Shown one piece after another: positions 23,990 through 48,851 of a stretch of DNA of 64,000 nt. This stretch comes from Thermoleptolyngbya sichuanensis A183. GTDB taxonomy: Bacteria > Cyanobacteriota > Cyanobacteriia > Elainellales > Elainellaceae. The position numbers and the translations under genes were made by a program. The notes below the pieces were generated by a model that had not been told where the DNA came from, made no database searches, and worked only from the letters and a program-made list of their open reading frames with translations. The DNA lies in assembly GCF_013177315.1 (NCBI RefSeq), contig NZ_CP053661.1:806001-870000 (forward strand). Direction: 5' to 3'. Within the stretch, counting starts at the first letter, position 1. Each line of letters starts with the position of its first letter.

Positions 23990-25960
23990 CTAACGAGTCA
24001 GGCGGGTTAGCACCTGGTTCGAGCGCTCTACGAAGGCCTTCATGCCCTCTGCATCAAACCCCTTCTGGCTCATCAGCGCTAGGTCGTAGATGTGCTGGCA
24101 GAGCAGCGTTGAGAGATCGTCTGAGGCGGCCGAACCATCGGGCTGGAGAATCGTGCCCTGGCTGCGGGACAGCAAGTTTTGCACCAGCGGATGGGCCGTG
24201 TTGACTAGCAGAATGTGTTCCTCTGGGAACGCCATTTCCTGCTGTTGTAGCAGCGCGGTCATTTCCTGGAGGCGGCGCAGGCTTTCGGGCAGCAGCACCA
24301 TCGCGGGCGGCGCGGCTTCGGCATTGTCGGATTTGAGCGCTTCAGTGCGAATCGTCAGCTTGGGCTTGTTCAGCGCCTTTTCAAACAGTTCTTTAATCTG
24401 TTCGCTGCGGGTCTTGTTGGTGGTCGGGTCAATGATGTCGTTTGCCTGGTCTTTATCAATCAGCGTATCGTCAAGTTCCGAATCCACCCGCGAGAAGCGC
24501 ACTTCGGGATATTCTCGCTCCAAGAAGCTGACAAAGTGCGAATCGATGAAGGAATCTAGGAACAGCACCTCTAGCCCCTGGCTCTTGTGCAACTCCACAT
24601 AGGTCGCCTGACCCGACTCATCGTTGCAATAGAAGACGCGGTTTTCGTGGCGCTCTTTCACCCGCTCTAGATAATCCTTGAGCGTGGTGTAGGTTTTGCC
24701 ATCGACCGTGTTGGATGGAGCGGCAGCACCCGACTCCCACACGTCGCCCTCGGCAGTCTGCACTTCTACAGCCGGTTTCTCGGCGGGTGGCTCCTGATAA
24801 GTCGTGCGGAAAATCAGGATATCTTCGACCTGCTTTTTGAACTTGTCGTCGTTCATCGAGCCGAATTTGACAAAGGTGCCCAGGTCTTGCCAACTGCGGA
24901 TGTAGGCTTCGCGGTCGTCGCGGTAGAGTTCCTTGAGGCGATCGCCCACCTTTTTCGCAATATAGTCCGCAATGCGGCGCACTGTGCGATCGTTCTGCAA
25001 GAAGCTGCGCGACACGTTCAGCGGAATGTCGGAGCTATCAATCACGCCCCGCAGCGGCATCAGGAATCGGGGAATCACCTCTTCGCAGTTGTCGCTGACG
25101 AAGACCTGATTGCAGAACAGCTTGATTTGCCCCTTGGTCACGTCCACATCGGGGCGCAGCTTGGGAAAGTAGAGAATGCCGTTTACGACAAAGGGATAAT
25201 CGGTATTCAAATGCACCCACAGCAGCGGGTCTTCCTGGAACGGATAGAGATAGCGATAAAACTCCAGGTAGTCATCCTTGGTCAGCGAACTGGGCGATTC
25301 TTTCCAGGGTGCTTTCTGGCGGTTGATTTGCTCGCCGTCTAGGTAGATCGGCACGGGCATAAAGTCGCAATACTTCCGCACCAACTGCTGAATGCGGGCG
25401 GTTTCCAGGTATTCCTCTTCTTCGTCCTGCAACGTCAGCGTAATTGTGGTGCCCCGCGTCGTGCGATCGGACTCGGACAACTGAAACTCCGTAGACCCGT
25501 CACAATCCCACCGGACGGGCTGAGCGCCATCTTTGTAGGACAGCGTATCGATGCGGACATGCTTCGCCACCATAAAGGACGAATAAAAACCCAGCCCAAA
25601 GTGGCCAATAATCTGCTGATCGCTGCTGGCTTTGTACTTTTCGACAAACTCTTCGGCGCTAGAAAACGCCACCTGATTGATGTACTTTTTTACTTCGTCG
25701 GCGGTCATGCCGATGCCGTTGTCGGACACCGACAGCGTTTTTGCGTCCTTGTCGATTTTGATTTCAATTAGCGGATCGCCCAAATCGCCGGAATATTCGC
25801 CGGAGTGCGACACCATTCGCAGCTTTTGGATCGCGTCTACGGCGTTGGATATCAGCTCCCGCAAGAAGATTTCGTGGTCGGAATAGAGCCACTTCTTGAT
25901 AATCGGGAAAATATTCTCGGTATGAATGGAAATATTGCCCTGTTCCAGAATCGTCGTCAT
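23990..25960 (-). CDS. htpG: Chaperone protein HtpG (Hsp90)
   Basis: This 656-residue protein is bacterial Hsp90. The N-terminal ATPase domain shows the GHKL motifs: LISNAVDAIQKLR (about residues 35-47), VSDNGIGMTADEV (about 79-91) and GHFGLGFYSSFMVA (about 122-135). The middle domain contains VNGILYFPK and a clear SRSFLQNDR catalytic-loop segment, and the C-terminal dimerisation domain ends near LTRLTR. The start is the ATG at 25960 (MTTILEQGNI), since the 22 extra residues upstream are not homologous. In cyanobacteria HtpG helps in heat, cold and light stress and in phycobilisome and chlorophyll enzyme stability. It is a single gene, convergent with ffh. Confidence 0.95.
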   Translation of the reverse strand: MTTILEQGNISIHTENIFPIIKKWLYSDHEIFLRELISNAVDAIQKLRMVSHSGEYSGDLGDPLIEIKIDKDAKTLSVSDNGIGMTADEVKKYINQVAFSSAEEFVEKYKASSDQQIIGHFGLGFYSSFMVAKHVRIDTLSYKDGAQPVRWDCDGSTEFQLSESDRTTRGTTITLTLQDEEEEYLETARIQQLVRKYCDFMPVPIYLDGEQINRQKAPWKESPSSLTKDDYLEFYRYLYPFQEDPLLWVHLNTDYPFVVNGILYFPKLRPDVDVTKGQIKLFCNQVFVSDNCEEVIPRFLMPLRGVIDSSDIPLNVSRSFLQNDRTVRRIADYIAKKVGDRLKELYRDDREAYIRSWQDLGTFVKFGSMNDDKFKKQVEDILIFRTTYQEPPAEKPAVEVQTAEGDVWESGAAAPSNTVDGKTYTTLKDYLERVKERHENRVFYCNDESGQATYVELHKSQGLEVLFLDSFIDSHFVSFLEREYPEVRFSRVDSELDDTLIDKDQANDIIDPTTNKTRSEQIKELFEKALNKPKLTIRTEALKSDNAEAAPPAMVLLPESLRRLQEMTALLQQQEMAFPEEHILLVNTAHPLVQNLLSRSQGTILQPDGSAASDDLSTLLCQHIYDLALMSQKGFDAEGMKAFVERSNQVLTRLTR

Positions 25961-26143
25961 AGGTCTTGGAAGAGAGGGGGAAAGGTTAATGGAATGGAGG
26001 CAGCAGAAGGATGAATTTCGGTGCAATCCTTCGAGCAGGTGATCAATCCTGCGATCGCCTTCTAATTTTAGTCGGCCGGGGTTTCGGTTGCGCGAGTTCG
26101 GATTTCCCTACCAGCGCGAATTTGCAGCCCCATCCGGTTCCCA

Positions 26144-26887
26144 TCACACCTCCAGCGCGTGAAACTGCTGCGGCTCCCAGCAGAATTCTGCCCGCACTTC
26201 GCCCTGTTCAATTTCCACTTGCTCGGCTGCCAGCCGTTCCGCTTGGTCGGGCAAGTGCTGAGTCAGCAGCCGTCCGCCTGCACCCACGACGCGATGCACG
26301 GGCAGCCCTGCATCTGCCTTTTTCAACATTACGGGAATGGTGCGATAGTGGCTGGCCGTTAGCCCCAGCGCCACCAGCAATTCCGTCGTCCGCACCACGC
26401 GCCCCGGCGGAATTCGCGCTACAAACTCGTGCAGTTTGCCCCGCGTGTCGTTGGGCACGGCGGGAAAGGTCTGGGGGAGAGTGGTTGTGCGATCGCCCAC
26501 CTGCACCGCCCCATCCCGAATCACTATCGCCAGCATTCCCCGCCGTCCGTTAATCCGCTTTGCCAGCCCCGGCTGGAGTGTGTTCAGATAGGCGCAGGGT
26601 TCGCAGTCGCCCATGATCCGCACCTGCGCCGCCTTGCCAAGCTGCAACACCTGACCCGATACCAATGCTTCCACCACGCCGTCCAGCAGGATGTTTTCTC
26701 GCAAGTCGCCCGGCCGCAGCCCGTGTTCCATCAGCACCGGAGCGCTGGCCAGCAACACCTGTCGGGGACTGCCCGCCCGCGCATGGGCATCGCCCTCAAT
26801 GCCCAGCCCCCGCCGCAACCAGAGGCGATCGCACGACGTGGGCGGTTTGCCAGACGCGGTTTTGGTAAACAGGTGGAGAATCTGCAA
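26144..26887 (-). CDS. MOSC domain fused to an alkyltransferase-like (MGMT-type) domain
   Basis: The 247-residue product joins two domains. Residues 1 to about 135 form a MOSC domain, a fold that handles sulfur carried on cysteine or molybdenum cofactor; its likely cysteine motif is GDCEPCAYLN. Residues about 145-225 resemble the DNA-binding domain of O6-alkylguanine-DNA alkyltransferase: HEFVARIPPGRVVRTTELL and then LPVHRVVGAGGRL. In true alkyltransferases the second block reads PCHRV with the methyl-accepting Cys; here it is Val. The protein therefore cannot transfer alkyl groups by that mechanism and fits the alkyltransferase-like (ATL) proteins, which usually have PWHRV and flag damage for nucleotide excision repair. 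What the fusion does is unknown. Confidence 0.8.
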   Translation of the reverse strand: MQILHLFTKTASGKPPTSCDRLWLRRGLGIEGDAHARAGSPRQVLLASAPVLMEHGLRPGDLRENILLDGVVEALVSGQVLQLGKAAQVRIMGDCEPCAYLNTLQPGLAKRINGRRGMLAIVIRDGAVQVGDRTTTLPQTFPAVPNDTRGKLHEFVARIPPGRVVRTTELLVALGLTASHYRTIPVMLKKADAGLPVHRVVGAGGRLLTQHLPDQAERLAAEQVEIEQGEVRAEFCWEPQQFHALEV

Positions 26888-26949: not shown

Positions 26950-27039
26950 AGGACTTACGCAATTGCGATTGGCTCTTTGAATTTTGGACAATTTCTCGCG
27001 GGCGCAGCCCGCGAGAAATTGTCCAACTGCGTCAGTCCT
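26950..27039. repeat. 90-bp palindromic element, copy 2
   Basis: The core GGACAATTTCTCGCGGGC / GCCCGCGAGAAATTGTCC is a near-perfect hairpin. The ends AGGACTTACGCA and TGCGTCAGTCCT are inverted repeats of 12 bp with one mismatch. It lies upstream of the PspA-like gene. Confidence 0.85.
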
Positions 27040-27153
27040 AACGTCTTTGTGAAGAGGCTGCCAGAGCAATTTTCTATAGCTTGCTTGCCTGCCCCCCAAA
27101 CGCCGACTACGTTACGATGTAAGACAACTCGCCGTGCAAAAACCGGAGCCATC

Positions 27154-27906
27154 ATGGGACTGCTTGACCGAATCTGGCGCGTGATTCGAGCCAACCTGAA
27201 CAGCCTGATCAGCCAGGCCGAAGATCCAGAGAAAATTCTGGAACAGACCGTCATTGATATGCAGGAAGACCTGATCCGGCTGAGGCAGGCGGTGGCCCAG
27301 GCGATCGCCACCCAAAAGCGCACCGAGCGGCAGCAGGCCCAGGCAGAGGCCCAATCCCGCGAGTGGTATCAGCGGGCGCGACTGGCGCTGCAAAAGGGCG
27401 AAGAAGTCTTGGCACGGGAGGCGCTCACCCGCCGCAAGACCTATCAAGACACCGCAGAGGCGCTGAAGGGGCAAATCGAGCAGCAGGCTGGCATCGTCGC
27501 CCAGATGAAGAAAAACATGATCATGCTGGAAAGCAAGCTGGCGGAGGCAAAGACGAAGAAAGATCTCTATATCGCCCGCGCCCGCTCTGCCAAGGCTTCT
27601 GAGCGGCTGAACGAAATGATTGGCAAGTATAACCCTGAGGGCGCACTGGCTGCCTTCGAGCGAATGGAGCAAAAGGTGCTGGATCTGGAAGCGCGGTCGG
27701 AGGCGATCGCCGAACTGAATGCCGACAAGCTCGAAGAACGCTTTGCCCAGATCGAAAGCGGCGGCGACATCGACAGTGAACTGGCTGCGATGAAGGCAGA
27801 ACTAATCGGGAAGCCCGCCCATGAGCTAGCGTCTGGTGAGTCTGCCAGATCACTACCCGAAGCCGATGACTTGGCCCGCCTGCGATCGCAGCTTGAAGAG
27901 AGCTAG
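27154..27906 (+). CDS. pspA: PspA/IM30 (Vipp1) family membrane-remodelling protein
   Basis: The 250-residue product is an almost wholly helical ESCRT-III-like protein of the PspA/IM30 family. It starts MGLLDRIWRVIRANLNSLIS, the amphipathic helix that binds membranes, followed by QAEDPEKILEQTVIDMQEDL and long heptad-rich helices up to about residue 190 (for example MLESKLAEAKTKKDLYIARA). Such proteins form rods or rings that protect and repair the plasma or thylakoid membrane. It lacks the extended C-terminal helix expected of Vipp1, and the helix text is closer to cyanobacterial PspA as I remember it, so I choose pspA. I start at the ATG at 27154; the 59 residues before it are translated palindromic repeat. 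Confidence 0.82.
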   Translation: MGLLDRIWRVIRANLNSLISQAEDPEKILEQTVIDMQEDLIRLRQAVAQAIATQKRTERQQAQAEAQSREWYQRARLALQKGEEVLAREALTRRKTYQDTAEALKGQIEQQAGIVAQMKKNMIMLESKLAEAKTKKDLYIARARSAKASERLNEMIGKYNPEGALAAFERMEQKVLDLEARSEAIAELNADKLEERFAQIESGGDIDSELAAMKAELIGKPAHELASGESARSLPEADDLARLRSQLEES

Positions 27907-27936: not shown

Positions 27937-28893
27937 CTATGCCTCTTCGCCTGCGTGGTACGAACTCCGCACCAGCGGGCCCGACCGCACATGGCTAAAG
28001 CCCATCTCGCGGGCGATCGCCCCTAGCTGCTCAAACGCTTCGGGAGTCCAATACCGCTGCACGGGCAGATGGTCGAGCGACGGCTGCATATATTGACCCA
28101 GCGTGAGGCGATCGCAGCCCACAGCACGTAGATCCCGCAGGGTTTCCAGCACCTCTGCCTCGGTTTCGCCATGCCCCAGCATCAGCCCCGACTTGGTGGG
28201 AATCTGGGGGTTCAAGACCTTGACCTGCTGCAACACAAAGAGCGATCGCTCATACTTTGCGCCTCGCCGCACGGGCCCTTGCAGCCGCCGCACCGTTTCC
28301 ACATTGTGGTTGTAGCAGGCAGGTTGGGCATTCACCACGGTCTGGATGCGCTCGATCTGGGCGGCTTCGCCCCCAGGGCCACCCCAAAAATCTGGAGTCA
28401 GCACTTCGATCTGGGTATCGGGGTTTCGCAGCCGAATTGCCGCCATCGTCTCGGCAAACCTGCCCGCGCCGCCGTCGGGCAGGTCGTCCCGTGCTACCGC
28501 AGTCAGCACCACGTAGCGCAAGCCCAAAAGCTGCACCGCTTCCGCCACTTTTTGCGGCTCTTCTGGATCGAGCGGCATCGGGGCGTGCCCCTTATCCACC
28601 TGGCAAAAGGCACAACTGCGCGTGCAGGTCGGCCCCATCAGCAAAAACGTCGCGGTCTTCTGGCCATAGCACTCGCCCCGGTTAGGACAGCGCCCCTCTT
28701 CGCAAATCGTGTGGATCTGCCGCTTTTTGATGATTTGCTGAACTGTGGACAGGTCGCGGGCGTTGCCAATCGGTCGCCGCAGCCAGTCGGGCAGGCTGGG
28801 TCGAGGGATGGCCGCAGGGGGCACCCTTTCGGGCTGTGGCAGAGAAAATTCCTGCGTAAATTCTAGAGGCAACTGTTCGACAGGTTGGCTCAT
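27937..28893 (-). CDS. lipA: Lipoyl synthase (LipA), copy 1
   Basis: The 318-residue radical-SAM enzyme inserts two sulfur atoms into octanoyl groups on lipoyl domains of pyruvate dehydrogenase, the glycine cleavage H protein and similar proteins. Both iron-sulfur binding motifs are present: the auxiliary cluster [12 protein letters not shown] (about residues 67-78) and the radical-SAM CTRSCAFC (about 93-100). The C-terminal part has [15 protein letters not shown] and a final [10 protein letters not shown] that includes the conserved Arg-Ser-Ser. I start at 28893 ([12 protein letters not shown]); the first 50 residues are a variable extension. A second lipA lies at 47973. Cyanobacteria and plants commonly keep two types. 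Confidence 0.92.
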
Positions 28894-29307
28894 GGGGGCA
28901 CAATAACGAAGAAGAGGGGGCGATCGCCCTTCCCTTGATTCTAGAGGGATTTCTAGAAGAACTCGCCGCAGACGCGAATTGAGTTGAGGAAACACAGTTT
29001 CGGAGCAAAGCGCAGGGAGGATGACGGTTTCGGGCGAATCTTGACGGGGGATCGCGCGATTTCAAGCATGAGCCGCTAAACTGAATCGTATTACCATTGA
29101 ATAGTATTGAGTATTAGTATCAAAAAGTCAGTCCCAAAAAGCTGTATCCGTTATTCTGAAGCAAGCGCGTTTTTAATACGCTGCTTTTCTTTGCTTTAAT
29201 ACGCTGCTCTTCCTAGTCCCCGCCTGCTCCCCGCTTGATTTAGAATTCTAGATTCGCTGCTTTTCCCGCTCGCTACTACCTTCCAGTCACTACCGCAGGA
29301 GTCCACC
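28894..29307. other. Gene-free stretch upstream of the response regulator
   Basis: No credible gene. The motif TTAATACGCTGC occurs twice (near 29174 and 29203), and AT-rich text around 29090-29130 (GAATAGTATTGAGTATTAGT) may contain the promoter of the downstream response regulator gene. Confidence 0.4.
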
Positions 29308-33337: not shown

Positions 33338-33568
33338 ATGGGAAAAGCTGGACAAGCACTCAAGCAGGTGCTAGAAACTTACAACATTAGCCAATACAGC
33401 CTGTCGGTTGAAATGAATGTGGAGCGCAACAACATTTACCGATGGGTCAATGAGAAGCGCGATCCAACCGCAGAAACCGTAATTGAAATTGTGCGGGCAC
33501 TGAAAACACTCAATCCAGAAGCAGCAAAAGCGTTTGCGAAGCTGTATTTGATGGATGAGGTCGATTAG
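33338..33568 (+). CDS. XRE-family helix-turn-helix protein
   Basis: This 76-residue protein is a single Cro/XRE-type HTH domain. The helices read ALKQVLETYNISQYSLSVEM and NVERNNIYRWVNEKRDPTAE, the latter being the recognition helix, followed by TVIEIVRALKTLNPEAAKAF. It has the size of a phage-like repressor or an antitoxin, but no toxin gene adjoins it. It is convergent with the interrupted HNH endonuclease gene and overlaps its 3' end by 4 bp. Palindromes just upstream suggest autoregulation. It may control the restriction-type operon on the other strand, which is inference from position only. Confidence 0.8.
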   Translation: MGKAGQALKQVLETYNISQYSLSVEMNVERNNIYRWVNEKRDPTAETVIEIVRALKTLNPEAAKAFAKLYLMDEVD

Positions 33569-34412
33569 GAGACTTTCCAAAAGGAGCGATGCCATTGAAG
33601 CGCTTCGACTCTGGGCTGATGTTGCTCCGGAAGTAAGATTAGCTCTTGATGGAAGTCTTTGAGCGATCGCAATCCTGGGGGTGATTCTTCTTCAAATCGG
33701 TCTGAGCAAACAATCACCCGATAATTATCATCAATGCTAAACCAGCCGCGATCGAAGGCCCAATGGTGGTTTTTGCAAAGCGATAGACCATTATCAAACC
33801 TGTCATCTCGAAACTCGGCAAACGGTTTGATGTGCGCCCCATCTACAATCGTCTGATTGTTAGAGCCGACGATTTTCAATCGACATAAGGCACATTGATG
33901 TTGATAAAGACGAACCACAATTCGCCGAAAAGCAGCATCCCTAACAAAAACTCTATCTTGATCTTTTAATTCTGAAACATCATAAATCTCACCGCCCTTT
34001 TCAAGGAGTCGAAGCTGAATATCTTCTAACTCGTCCTTTTCTTGAATGCCCTCAAACTGCTGAGCCTCATTTGGAAAGTAAGTCTGAATCAATACCTCAC
34101 TCAATCTTAGCCGATTGGCTGGTTCCTGAAGATATTCAAATAATTCTTCGTCTAAATAAGCATATTTGACAACATCTCTCAGAGCAGTCAAACCTTTAAT
34201 TTTTACCTTTCTAGCAATAGTTGCTTCAAATCCAGGATTCGCCATTAGACGCCAGAATTCGTCTCCCTTTAGATGAAAGAAAGGGAGAGAAATATCGGAG
34301 TGATATTTGGGATTCTTTACCAAGCTTCCCCAATATTTAAGAAATGCTGCTACCAACTCTGGAGACAAATAGATCGGGTGCATCCCAGTTATGCAATGAG
34401 TAGAAGTGCTTA

Positions 34413-35865: not shown

Positions 35866-36411
35866 TCATTGAGGTCTGTAGAACTCTGAAAAGTCTTCGG
35901 GAAGGTAAGCAGGAGGTTCTCTGAATCGGTCTGTTTGTGAAATCTCTTCAATCAGTGCGTACTGACCTGGAAACCATCGAGAGATCAAAACTGCGGTTAG
36001 GCTACCTCTGATATCTGGTTGACATAAAAATTCAAATAGATCCTCGTCAAGATAGGCATACCTGATTGCGCGGTTCACTTCGGCAAAGGTCTTAAGCTTC
36101 ACACCTGATGAAATGAGGTGTTCATAACTAGAGTTTGCCCAAAAATGCCAGAACTTACCACTTCTCATGTGAAAGAATGGTCGAGAAATATCTGGGCGAT
36201 GATTCAGTGATCCTAGATAGCTCCAATACTTTAGAAATGTTTGAATTAGTTTAGACTCTAAGTAGATCTGATTTTTTGTAATAATTCTACGCTGGATGTG
36301 CTCGATCACTGACAGGAGCAAAATGGGTTTGTGTGGTGCAACTCCATGAGCGCGATCGACCCTCAATCGCTGAAACTTCTTAGCATAATAGTCAAGTGCT
36401 TCAATCTTCAA
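35866..36411 (-). CDS. Stand-alone N-terminal domain of COG3440-type endonucleases (putative modified-DNA reader)
   Basis: This 181-residue protein is homologous to the N-terminal domain of the HNH endonuclease encoded next to it, with no nuclease part. Shared text includes RVDRAHGVAPHKPILLLSVI, IYLESKLIQTFLKYW, DISRPFFHMRSGKFWHF and IRYAYLDEDLFEFL. From memory this domain type resembles the sulfur-binding domain of ScoMcrA-like enzymes that read phosphorothioated DNA; that link is inference. The probable start is TTG at 36411, with no good ATG upstream. Its stop overlaps the start of the endonuclease gene (ATGA), so the two are translationally coupled. It may be a specificity partner or a decayed duplicate. 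The DNA is richer in A and T than its surroundings. Confidence 0.75.
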   Translation of the reverse strand: MKIEALDYYAKKFQRLRVDRAHGVAPHKPILLLSVIEHIQRRIITKNQIYLESKLIQTFLKYWSYLGSLNHRPDISRPFFHMRSGKFWHFWANSSYEHLISSGVKLKTFAEVNRAIRYAYLDEDLFEFLCQPDIRGSLTAVLISRWFPGQYALIEEISQTDRFREPPAYLPEDFSEFYRPQ

Positions 36412-37322: not shown

Positions 37323-38012
37323 TCAGTCTTGTCCTTCACGCTCTTGTCCTGCATTTTGCGGTTGGCTATGAAACATCTGGAGCAACCAGCGGCTAATCTC
37401 ACCGTCTTCCTGCGTCTGGCTGCGCTTGAGGGCTTCTTCCACAAGGGCGATCGCCAGTCCTGGCAGCACCTCCGACTCGCGGATTTGCCGACTGCCCCCA
37501 TCCGCCACCGCAAAGGCAATCACCTCACCCTGCTCCACATCCACCACCCAGTATTCCTGCACCCCCAACCGCTCGTAGAGCAGGCGCTTGCGTCCAAGGT
37601 CATCGCTGAGGATTGTAGAGGCAACTTCGATGACCAACTGCGGCGCACCAAACTCGTTTACATCAATGGGCTGAGAAGACTTGGGTGGAATGCGGAACGC
37701 GGCACCAATGTAATATGCCAGGTCAGGCTGACACTCGCGCACGCCTGGTTTGCGAAAACTGCCGTTGGTAAAGCCTTTGAGGCGAATATTTTTGACCGTG
37801 CCGTAGAGACTGACCGTTTGGGCAAGAATCGTATTATCCTGGCTATGCCCAGATCCAATCGGCATCGTCTCAATCCTCATCGAGTCAGTGTCGTAGTAGA
37901 ACCGGGCTTGTTCTAGTTCAGGGCGATCGCCCAGTGCCAGAAAGGTCTCCCAACTCGCTTTGACCCACGCATCGGTGACCAGATTTTGCGGTGCGGGTAA
38001 GGTATTCACCAT
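37323..38012 (-). CDS. Uma2 family endonuclease (DUF820)
   Basis: The 229-residue product belongs to the Uma2/DUF820 family, which is greatly expanded in cyanobacteria and has a restriction-endonuclease-like fold. The catalytic PD-(D/E)xK arrangement can be seen as CQPDLAYYIG (Asp), APQLVIEVAS (Glu-x-x) and LGRKRLLYERLGVQEYWVVD (Lys). Family text also includes MPIGSGHSQDN near the N-terminus. Their biological role is poorly known. The gene is a single unit, upstream of the accessory island. Its start ATG at 38012 is well placed. Confidence 0.88.
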   Translation of the reverse strand: MVNTLPAPQNLVTDAWVKASWETFLALGDRPELEQARFYYDTDSMRIETMPIGSGHSQDNTILAQTVSLYGTVKNIRLKGFTNGSFRKPGVRECQPDLAYYIGAAFRIPPKSSQPIDVNEFGAPQLVIEVASTILSDDLGRKRLLYERLGVQEYWVVDVEQGEVIAFAVADGGSRQIRESEVLPGLAIALVEEALKRSQTQEDGEISRWLLQMFHSQPQNAGQEREGQD

Positions 38013-47972: not shown

Positions 47973-48851
47973 GTGACGGTCAAGCCAACGAAACCAGACT
48001 GGCTGCGGGTAAAAGCGCCGCAGTGGGAGCGAGTCGGAACAGTCAAAGAAATCCTGCGGGATTTGGGGCTAAACACGGTCTGCGAGGAGGCCTCCTGCCC
48101 CAATATTGGCGAGTGTTTTAATGCGGGCACAGCGACGTTTCTGATCATGGGCCCCGCCTGCACCCGCGCCTGTCCCTATTGCGATATCGACTTCGAGAAA
48201 AAGCCAAAAGCGCTCGACCCGCAAGAGCCAGAGAACCTGGCAGAGGCTGTGCGCCGCATGACGCTGAACCATGTGGTGATTACCTCGGTGAACCGGGATG
48301 ACCTGCCCGATGGCGGCGCGGCCCAGTTTGTGCGCTGCATCGAAGCCGTGCGGCGGGTATCGCCTCAGACGACTATTGAGGTGCTGATTCCTGACCTCTG
48401 CGGCAACTGGGACGCGCTGGCGCAAATTCTCGACGCTCGTCCTGAAGTGCTGAATCACAATACGGAAACGGTTCCCCGGCTGTATCGGCGGGTGCGTCCG
48501 CAGGGCGATTATGCCCGCACGCTGGAGTTATTAAGGCGATCGCGCAAACTCGCTCCCTCGGTCTACACCAAGTCGGGCATTATGGTGGGTCTGGGCGAGA
48601 CGGATGAGGAAGTGCGCCAAGTGATGCAGGACTTGCGCTCGGTGGATTGCGACATCCTCACCATCGGGCAATATCTCCAGCCCAGCCCCAAACACTTGCC
48701 ATTGCAGGCATTTGTCACGCCGGAGCAGTTCGATGCGTGGCGCGTGGCGGGCGAGGCGATGGGCTTTTTGCAGGTCGTGTCTTCGCCGCTGACGCGCAGT
48801 TCTTATCACGCCGAGCAGGTGCGGGCGTTGATGCAGCAGAATCCGCGTTGA
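47973..48851 (+). CDS. lipA: Lipoyl synthase (LipA), copy 2
   Basis: The 292-residue radical-SAM enzyme inserts sulfur into octanoylated lipoyl domains. Motifs: auxiliary cluster [12 protein letters not shown] (about residues 36-47), radical-SAM [11 protein letters not shown] (about 62-72), and [17 protein letters not shown] near 200. The end [13 protein letters not shown] has the conserved Arg-Ser-Ser. The start is GTG at 47973. The other LipA (27937-28893) differs by a long N-terminal extension and in much of the sequence, so the two are distinct paralogues and not a recent duplicate. This copy is closer to the usual bacterial length. Confidence 0.92.

What the first reader, a model, noticed from the sequence alone, without database searches (positions are those of the whole stretch)
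26144..26887. MOSC domain fused to an alkyltransferase-like domain lacking the acceptor cysteine
The MGMT-type domain has PVHRV where active enzymes have PCHRV and typical ATL proteins PWHRV. The N-terminal MOSC domain keeps its Cys (GDCEPC). A sulfur-handling domain and a damaged-base reader in one chain is a surprising pair. Possible links are repair of thiolated bases or sulfur-modified DNA, an attractive but unproven idea given the phosphorothioation-type remnants in the same window.
Basis: partly seen in the sequence, partly recalled or inferred. Interest (0 to 1): 0.6.

Follow-up and report, generated by a model that had tools for sequence, protein, structure and literature searches.

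The report
Molybdenum-enzyme domain fused to DNA-repair relative
Some cyanobacteria carry one protein that joins a domain related to molybdenum enzymes that detoxify damaged DNA building blocks with a remodelled relative of a DNA-lesion-binding protein, a conserved and apparently undescribed pairing that may handle chemically damaged bases.

Summary
ORF 26144-26887 (minus strand, TTG start) encodes a MOSC domain (residues 1-140) followed by an alkyltransferase-like (ATL) domain (146-243) that reads PVHR. It is not a lost stop codon: 26 distinct cyanobacterial homologues share the architecture. In the closest pairs both halves are under purifying selection. The predicted fold matches YuaD, YiiM and mARC1 (best Z 18.5, 16.3, 15.6) and S. 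pombe Atl1 (Z 13.1).

The fused ATL domains group apart from the ordinary ATL, which this genome also has. They have Pro for Gly after the arginine finger (26 of 26 fused; 0 of 30 standalone), V/I/T/R for Trp, and usually Thr for the base-flipping Tyr (Tyr kept in 3 of 26). Arginine finger, P.HR and the MOSC C.PC are invariant in the 26.

The sulfur/phosphorothioate idea is not supported: none of 12 fusion genomes has DndC above cut-off, though numbers are small. MOSC proteins YiiM and YcbX are molybdenum-dependent reductases of N-hydroxylated purines. My best reading is a molybdenum-cofactor N-reductase whose ATL-derived domain provides a base pocket. DNA or free nucleotide as substrate is open; the Pro and Tyr changes argue against ordinary ATL-style DNA binding. 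My searches found no paper on this fusion.

The parts
26144..26887 (-). MOSC-ATL fusion gene, 247 aa, TTG start (no in-frame ATG upstream in the open frame; start uncertain by a few codons)
26468..26887 (-). MOSC domain, residues 1-140 (short, YuaD/YiiM type)
   Evidence: Pfam; fold match YuaD Z 18.5, YiiM 5yhh 16.3, mARC1 7p41 15.6
26594..26596 (-). codon of Cys98, the universal MOSC cysteine (aligned with the PC of E. coli YiiM); 26 of 26 homologues
26603..26605 (-). codon of Cys95, first Cys of the C.PC motif; 26 of 26 homologues (not shared by E. coli YiiM)
26159..26452 (-). ATL/MGMT-type domain, residues 146-243
   Evidence: Pfam; profile match to Atl1 E 8.7e-8; Atl1 fold Z 13.1
26342..26344 (-). 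codon of Arg182, arginine-finger position; 26 of 26
26333..26335 (-). codon of Pro185, replaces the Gly of the recognition helix; Pro in 26 of 26 fused, Gly in 30 of 30 standalone ATLs
26297..26299 (-). codon of Val197, the Cys (MGMT) / Trp (ATL) position; V 21, I 3, T 1, R 1 of 26
26387..26389 (-). codon of Thr167, position of the base-flipping Tyr; T 21, Y 3, S 1, M 1 of 26

Best explanation
The protein is most likely a molybdenum-cofactor-dependent reductase of the MOSC superfamily. Its N-terminal domain binds Moco through Cys98 and reduces N-oxygenated (N-hydroxylated) compounds, as YiiM and YcbX reduce 6-hydroxylaminopurine (HAP) to adenine. The C-terminal ATL-derived domain supplies a nucleobase-binding pocket beside that site and so restricts the enzyme to damaged bases, whether as nucleotides or in nucleic acid. 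Shown here: the fusion, its conservation, the predicted folds, the Cys98 alignment, selection on both domains in the closest pairs, and a Moco biosynthesis gene (moaC) in the host. Inferred: Moco binding, N-reductase activity, base substrates, and the role of the ATL domain.
For: Residues shared with E. coli YiiM are kept (G29, G32, D33, N65, P97 and C98 align). C95, P97, C98, R42, Q43, E64 and N65 are invariant in 26 of 26. The MOSC fold is predicted with confidence (pLDDT 91.3, pTM 0.85). The host has MoaC. MOSC proteins studied in vitro show N-reduction, and YiiM, YcbX and mARC protect against HAP (PMC10637980 passages). In the same E. coli defence, endonuclease V is the DNA-repair arm (PMC1173102 abstract and passages), and EndoV is the enzyme that archaea fuse to AGT/ATL domains (PMC10779285 passages). 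Both domains are constrained: dN/dS 0.10-0.23 (MOSC) and 0.09-0.28 (ATL) in the 4 closest pairs. In 7 of 12 genomes with the fusion, the gene lies divergently next to prxQ and a Nudix hydrolase (weak, see against).
Against: No direct evidence for Moco, activity or substrate. The review that reports N-reduction says it is uncertain whether that activity is the biological function of MOSC proteins. Sequence alone gives no significant PDB match for the MOSC half (YiiM 5yhh E 0.85). The prxQ-Nudix pair exists without the fusion too (29 of 30 loci, 18 of 19 from genomes without the fusion), and the window's own gene is not there (htpG follows it, a pspA-like gene precedes it). MoaC is in 24 of 25 fusion genomes but also in 338 of 388 overall, so it is uninformative; G015 (91% complete) has the fusion and no MoaC hit.
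Confidence: 0.42

Rival explanations
1. The ATL-derived domain has lost nucleobase and DNA recognition and is only a lid or scaffold that closes the MOSC cavity, as the C-terminal helical bundle does in YiiM and MOSC_N in mARC. The enzyme then reduces some other N-oxygenated small molecule.
For: Tyr lost in 23 of 26, Trp lost in 26 of 26, invariant Pro in the recognition helix. The model's helix is broken just after Arg182 (helices 178-182 and 184-189; the same segment of Atl1 was not compared). In YiiM a helix of the C-terminal bundle helps wall the cavity (PMC5818509 passages) and in mARC1 Moco lies between the two domains (PMC10637980 passages).
Against: Arginine finger and P.HR in 26 of 26 and the Glu in 25 of 26 (one gap) are kept, as expected if the pocket still binds something. 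The recognition segment is more positive than in standalone ATLs (net +2 to +5 against 0 to +3), though the window protein's whole ATL domain has net charge 0.
Confidence: 0.27
2. An ATL-type lesion sensor that flags O6-alkylguanine-like lesions for nucleotide excision repair, with MOSC as an accessory.
For: Profile best match is Atl1 (E 8.7e-8); arginine finger conserved 26 of 26; ATLs interact with UvrA and UvrC (PMC10779285 passages).
Against: The genome already has a canonical ATL (PWHR) and an AraC-type MGMT protein (PCHR). The fused group has lost Tyr (23 of 26) and Trp and gained Pro.
Confidence: 0.13
3. One reading: a sulfur carrier acting on thiolated bases or phosphorothioate DNA.
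For: Two conserved cysteines (C.PC) in the MOSC domain; phosphorothioate-restriction-like genes 7-9 kb away, below cut-off; a DndC-like match below cut-off in this genome (134 bits against 290).
Against: 0 of 12 fusion genomes have DndC above cut-off, against 6 of 48 others (small numbers). MOSC proteins studied in vitro are N-reductases. The C.PC motif also occurs in MOSC proteins without an ATL domain (L041, L057).
Confidence: 0.06
4. Artefact or decaying gene (lost stop codon, pseudogene).
For: TTG start; Pfam score for the ATL half barely above cut-off in this protein; one homologue (G144) has a broken C-terminus.
Against: 26 homologues with the same architecture; dN/dS well under 1 in both domains of the closest pairs; group-specific invariant residues.
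Confidence: 0.01

Closest known systems
YiiM / YuaD (short MOSC proteins; E. coli YiiM is annotated 6-hydroxyaminopurine reductase)
   Same: Same predicted fold over residues 1-140 (Z 16.3 / 18.5); G..GD, EN and the second Cys of C.PC align with E. coli YiiM
   Different: YiiM has a 3-helix C-terminal bundle; here an ATL domain takes that place in the chain. E. coli YiiM lacks the first Cys of C.PC
Alkyltransferase-like proteins (S. pombe Atl1, E. coli YbaZ, cyanobacterial ATL)
   Same: Same predicted fold (Atl1 Z 13.1), arginine finger, P.HR, no acceptor Cys
   Different: Fused to MOSC; V/I/T/R instead of Trp; Tyr mostly lost; Gly to Pro in the recognition helix; separate group in the tree
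AGT/ATL-endonuclease V fusions of archaea
   Same: An AGT/ATL domain fused to an enzyme that belongs to defence against abnormal purines (PMC10779285, PMC1173102 passages)
   Different: Partner is a MOSC domain, in cyanobacteria, and the ATL domain is more altered
PhnI-MOSC fusions (seen here in cyanobacteria)
   Same: MOSC fused to a protein that (recalled) handles a purine nucleotide
   Different: C-P lyase subunit, MOSC at the C-terminus, different chemistry

Membership tests
MOSC superfamily | Pfam MOSC match above curated cut-off | tested here: met
   43.2 bits against 22.7; 14 of 14 proteins of A3 match at E 0.01 or better
MOSC superfamily | single universally conserved cysteine | tested here: met
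   Cys98 aligns with the PC of E. coli YiiM; 26 of 26
MOSC superfamily | MOSC beta-barrel fold | tested here: met
   YuaD Z 18.5, rmsd 2.0 over 139; mARC1 7p41 Z 15.6; predicted model only
MOSC superfamily | Moco binding and N-reductase activity | not testable with these tools
   MoaC present in the host only suggests that Moco can be made
ATL proteins | AGT C-terminal fold without the acceptor cysteine | tested here: met
   V at the Cys position
ATL proteins | Trp at the Cys position (most ATLs, per PMC10779285 passages) | tested here: not met
   V 21, I 3, T 1, R 1 of 26; standalone controls W 30 of 30
ATL proteins | HTH with arginine finger | tested here: met
   R 26 of 26; but Gly to Pro three residues on in 26 of 26
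ATL proteins | base-flipping Tyr | tested here: not met
   T here; Y in 3 of 26 fused, 30 of 30 standalone
ATL proteins | binding of O6-alkylguanine DNA | not testable with these tools
   needs protein
MGMT/AGT | PCHR nucleophilic cysteine | tested here: not met
   PVHR
DNA phosphorothioation (dnd) systems | co-occurrence with DndC | tested here: not met
   0 of 12 fusion genomes above cut-off, 6 of 48 others; small numbers, only DndC searched

The most novel reading that the evidence does not exclude
A new direct-reversal DNA repair enzyme. The ATL-derived domain flips or presents an N-hydroxylated base (such as N6-hydroxyadenine/HAP or N4-hydroxycytosine) out of DNA or RNA, and the MOSC-bound molybdenum centre reduces it back to the normal base in place. 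That would be the first molybdenum-dependent DNA repair enzyme I know of.
Probability: 0.12. Interest if true: 0.9.

Novelty: new variant of a known kind. Interest (0 to 1): 0.52.

Why it matters
N-hydroxylated bases are strong mutagens, and the known role of MOSC enzymes against them is detoxification of the base analogues. A conserved chain that ties such an enzyme to a domain descended from a DNA-lesion reader makes it directly testable whether this chemistry also occurs on nucleic acid. It also gives a natural case of an ATL domain remodelled at positions (Trp, Tyr, recognition-helix Gly) that standalone ATLs keep, and a clue to the physiological substrates of MOSC proteins, which remain uncertain (PMC10637980 passages).

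Tried and rejected
Neighbourhood as proof of function: in 7 of 12 genomes with the fusion it is divergent to prxQ and a Nudix hydrolase (in an eighth, G022, prxQ is about 3.6 kb away). The control showed that the prxQ-Nudix pair is general (29 of 30 loci, 18 of 19 from genomes without the fusion), so I count it as weak.

Moco co-occurrence: 24 of 25 fusion genomes have MoaC, but so do 338 of 388 of all genomes; uninformative.

Phosphorothioation: no association seen. DndC-like matches below cut-off occur in G000, G009 and G050 (fusion genomes) and in several non-fusion genomes.

Sequence search of the MOSC half against the PDB gave chance-like hits (mostly fructose-bisphosphatase), with YiiM at E 0.85; the fold comparison was used instead. 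The one search hits (designed repeat proteins) I take as repeat artefacts.

Spread outside cyanobacteria: the one genome-contig scan matched 39 stretches, of which 15 encode relatives: 13 fusions, all cyanobacterial, and 2 with a match to the MOSC half only (Actinomycetota, Halosimplex). It used two MOSC peptide patterns, so more distant fusions elsewhere are not excluded. A search of another phylum failed.

Literature (open-access PMC only): 0 papers hold 'MOSC domain' with 'alkyltransferase-like', and 0 hold 'alkyltransferase-like' with 'MGMT' and 'cyanobacteria'. 'MOSC' with 'methylguanine' gave 63 papers; 15 listings were seen, none on MOSC domains by title or abstract start. 'MOSC domain' with 'DNA repair' and 'fusion' gave 3; I saw passages of two and the listing of one, and none describes this fusion there. 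'phnI' with 'MOSC' and 'phosphonate' gave 2 listings, not on such a fusion by title. 'alkyltransferase-like' with '2-aminopurine' gave 0.

The tree had not settled (bootstrap correlation 0.945) and long branches join the groups; that fused and standalone rows are two groups is well supported (99/96), the root is not. It held 27 standalone rows: my text filter asked for H or F after the Trp and so missed 3 of 30 loci (L069, L074, L092). A check shows that these three keep Trp, Tyr, arginine finger and Gly but read PWQR. So the standalone counts are 30 of 30 for those four residues and 27 of 30 for the His.

Full report
What is there. The window lies in a 5.5 Mb one-contig genome (G000). Its relatives are cyanobacteria, as the record titles show for contigs whose lengths match those. 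The ORF at 26144-26887, minus strand, has 247 codons from a TTG; there is no in-frame ATG before residue 53, which would cut the MOSC domain, so TTG or a codon near it is the likely start. htpG (23990-26026) follows on the same strand and a pspA-like gene (within 26977-27906) stands divergent. Pfam finds MOSC and the MGMT DNA-binding domain.

Is it real and conserved. The full-length fusion is found in 12 of 60 genomes, the own one included, and a match spanning both domains in 25 of 388 class genomes (four families, patchy), plus a Spirulinaceae genome from the contig scan (L055). These 26 distinct proteins were aligned. One of them (L037, G144) has a broken C-terminus and gives gaps at some positions. 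In the four closest pairs dN/dS is 0.10-0.23 for MOSC and 0.09-0.28 for the ATL half (the 0.28 comes from the pair with the broken L037). Most other pairs were too diverged for a reliable dS. Both halves look maintained.

MOSC half. The AlphaFold model is confident (pLDDT 91.3, pTM 0.85). Residues 1-140 match YuaD (Z 18.5), Geobacillus YiiM (16.3) and mARC1 (15.6). Alignment of four fusions with E. coli YiiM, a cyanobacterial MOSC (L041) and a haloarchaeal one (L057) shares G29, G32, D33, G39, N65, G84, A87, P97, C98, G117 and G126. YiiM's cavity Cys is C119 in the Geobacillus protein, described as conserved in the whole MOSC family (PMC5818509 passages); a conserved Cys is thought to be the Mo ligand in mARC and perhaps all MOSC proteins (PMC10637980 passages). 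The host has MoaC and a second MOSC protein that reads like YcbX (L062; by inspection).

ATL half. A profile of the family matches Atl1 of S. pombe best (E 8.7e-8) and a Vibrio ATL next (1.2e-5), well ahead of true MGMTs (0.041 and worse), so it looks descended from an ATL rather than an MGMT. The host also has a canonical ATL with PWHR and an AraC-type MGMT protein with PCHR; a standalone ATL relative is present in 52 of 60 genomes. Thirty of those were read (27, 3). Cys/Trp position: W in 30 of 30 standalone; V 21, I 3, T 1, R 1 of 26 fused. Tyr: 30 of 30 standalone; 3 of 26 fused (T 21, S 1, M 1). Gly after the arginine finger: 30 of 30 standalone; Pro in 26 of 26 fused. Arginine finger: all of both. 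The His of P.HR: 26 of 26 fused, 27 of 30 standalone (Q in three). The three proteins that keep Tyr (L035-L037) lie at the base of the fused group as drawn (midpoint root, uncertain), so Pro and the Trp loss seem to precede the Tyr loss (inference). In the model the recognition helix is broken after Arg182 (helices 178-182 and 184-189). I recall that small residues there let the helix of MGMT pack into the minor groove; if so, the invariant Pro should change DNA binding. The segment is nonetheless more basic than in standalone ATLs (net +2 to +5 against 0 to +3), although the window protein's whole ATL domain has net charge 0.

How it most likely works. MOSC proteins studied in vitro reduce N-oxygenated compounds, and the bacterial ones were found through sensitivity to hydroxylaminopurine; the same review says the physiological substrates are uncertain (PMC10637980 passages). 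E. coli protects itself from that base with RdgB, endonuclease V and a Moco-dependent system (PMC1173102 abstract and passages). Archaea fuse AGT/ATL domains to endonuclease V (PMC10779285 passages). The cyanobacterial protein joins the ATL module to the other arm of that defence. I therefore propose a Moco-dependent N-reductase with an ATL-derived base pocket (0.42). Whether the substrate is a nucleotide or a base in DNA or RNA is open; the sequence changes make ordinary ATL-type duplex binding doubtful, so direct reversal in DNA is kept as the bold reading (0.12). A purely structural lid is the main rival (0.27).

Results against. The neighbourhood clue (prxQ, Nudix) is weak after its control; the MoaC test has no power and one fusion genome lacks a MoaC hit. 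Nothing here shows Moco, activity or substrate. A MOSC gene in a predicted operon with a Nudix hydrolase was noted in Deinococcus (PMC1274311 passages), which fits the housecleaning idea but is one case.

The sulfur and phosphorothioate link finds no support: none of 12 fusion genomes has DndC above cut-off, against 6 of 48 others, small numbers. The window's phosphorothioate-restriction-like genes match below cut-off and lie 7-9 kb away.

Novelty. Neither domain is new. The pairing and the remodelled ATL domain are, as far as my searches of the open-access library show, undescribed. Hence a new variant of known kinds, of solid but not extreme interest.

Noticed in passing
L124:1-1626(+), L125:3-1601(+), L126:43-1884(-), L127:1145-2800(-): PhnI (C-P lyase subunit) with a C-terminal MOSC domain in one open frame in four of four long-frame MOSC hits fetched (Pfam PhnI E 1e-148 or better, MOSC E 1e-10 or better). 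PhnJ follows in L124 (Pfam E 3.4e-148); similar ORFs stand beside it in L125 and L127 by inspection. A second MOSC fusion to a protein that (recalled) handles a purine nucleotide.
   Followed up: partly
window 33565-34383 and 35866-36411, minus strand: Two ORFs resembling parts of a phosphorothioated-DNA-binding restriction endonuclease (NF045808), both below cut-off (99.7 and 24 bits against 180); the first has an HNH domain.
   Followed up: partly
L094-L123: A prxQ-Nudix hydrolase gene pair is conserved in 29 of 30 cyanobacterial loci.
   Followed up: partly
L069, L074, L092: Three standalone cyanobacterial ATLs read PWQR instead of PWHR.
   Followed up: no
window 37323-38012, minus strand: Uma2-family putative restriction endonuclease (Pfam E 1.7e-22).
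   Followed up: no
window 27937-28995 (-) and 47973-48851 (+): Two radical-SAM ORFs that read like lipoyl synthases (LipA); Pfam Radical_SAM above cut-off in both, LIAS_N just below cut-off (20.4 and 26.8 bits against 27).
   Followed up: partly
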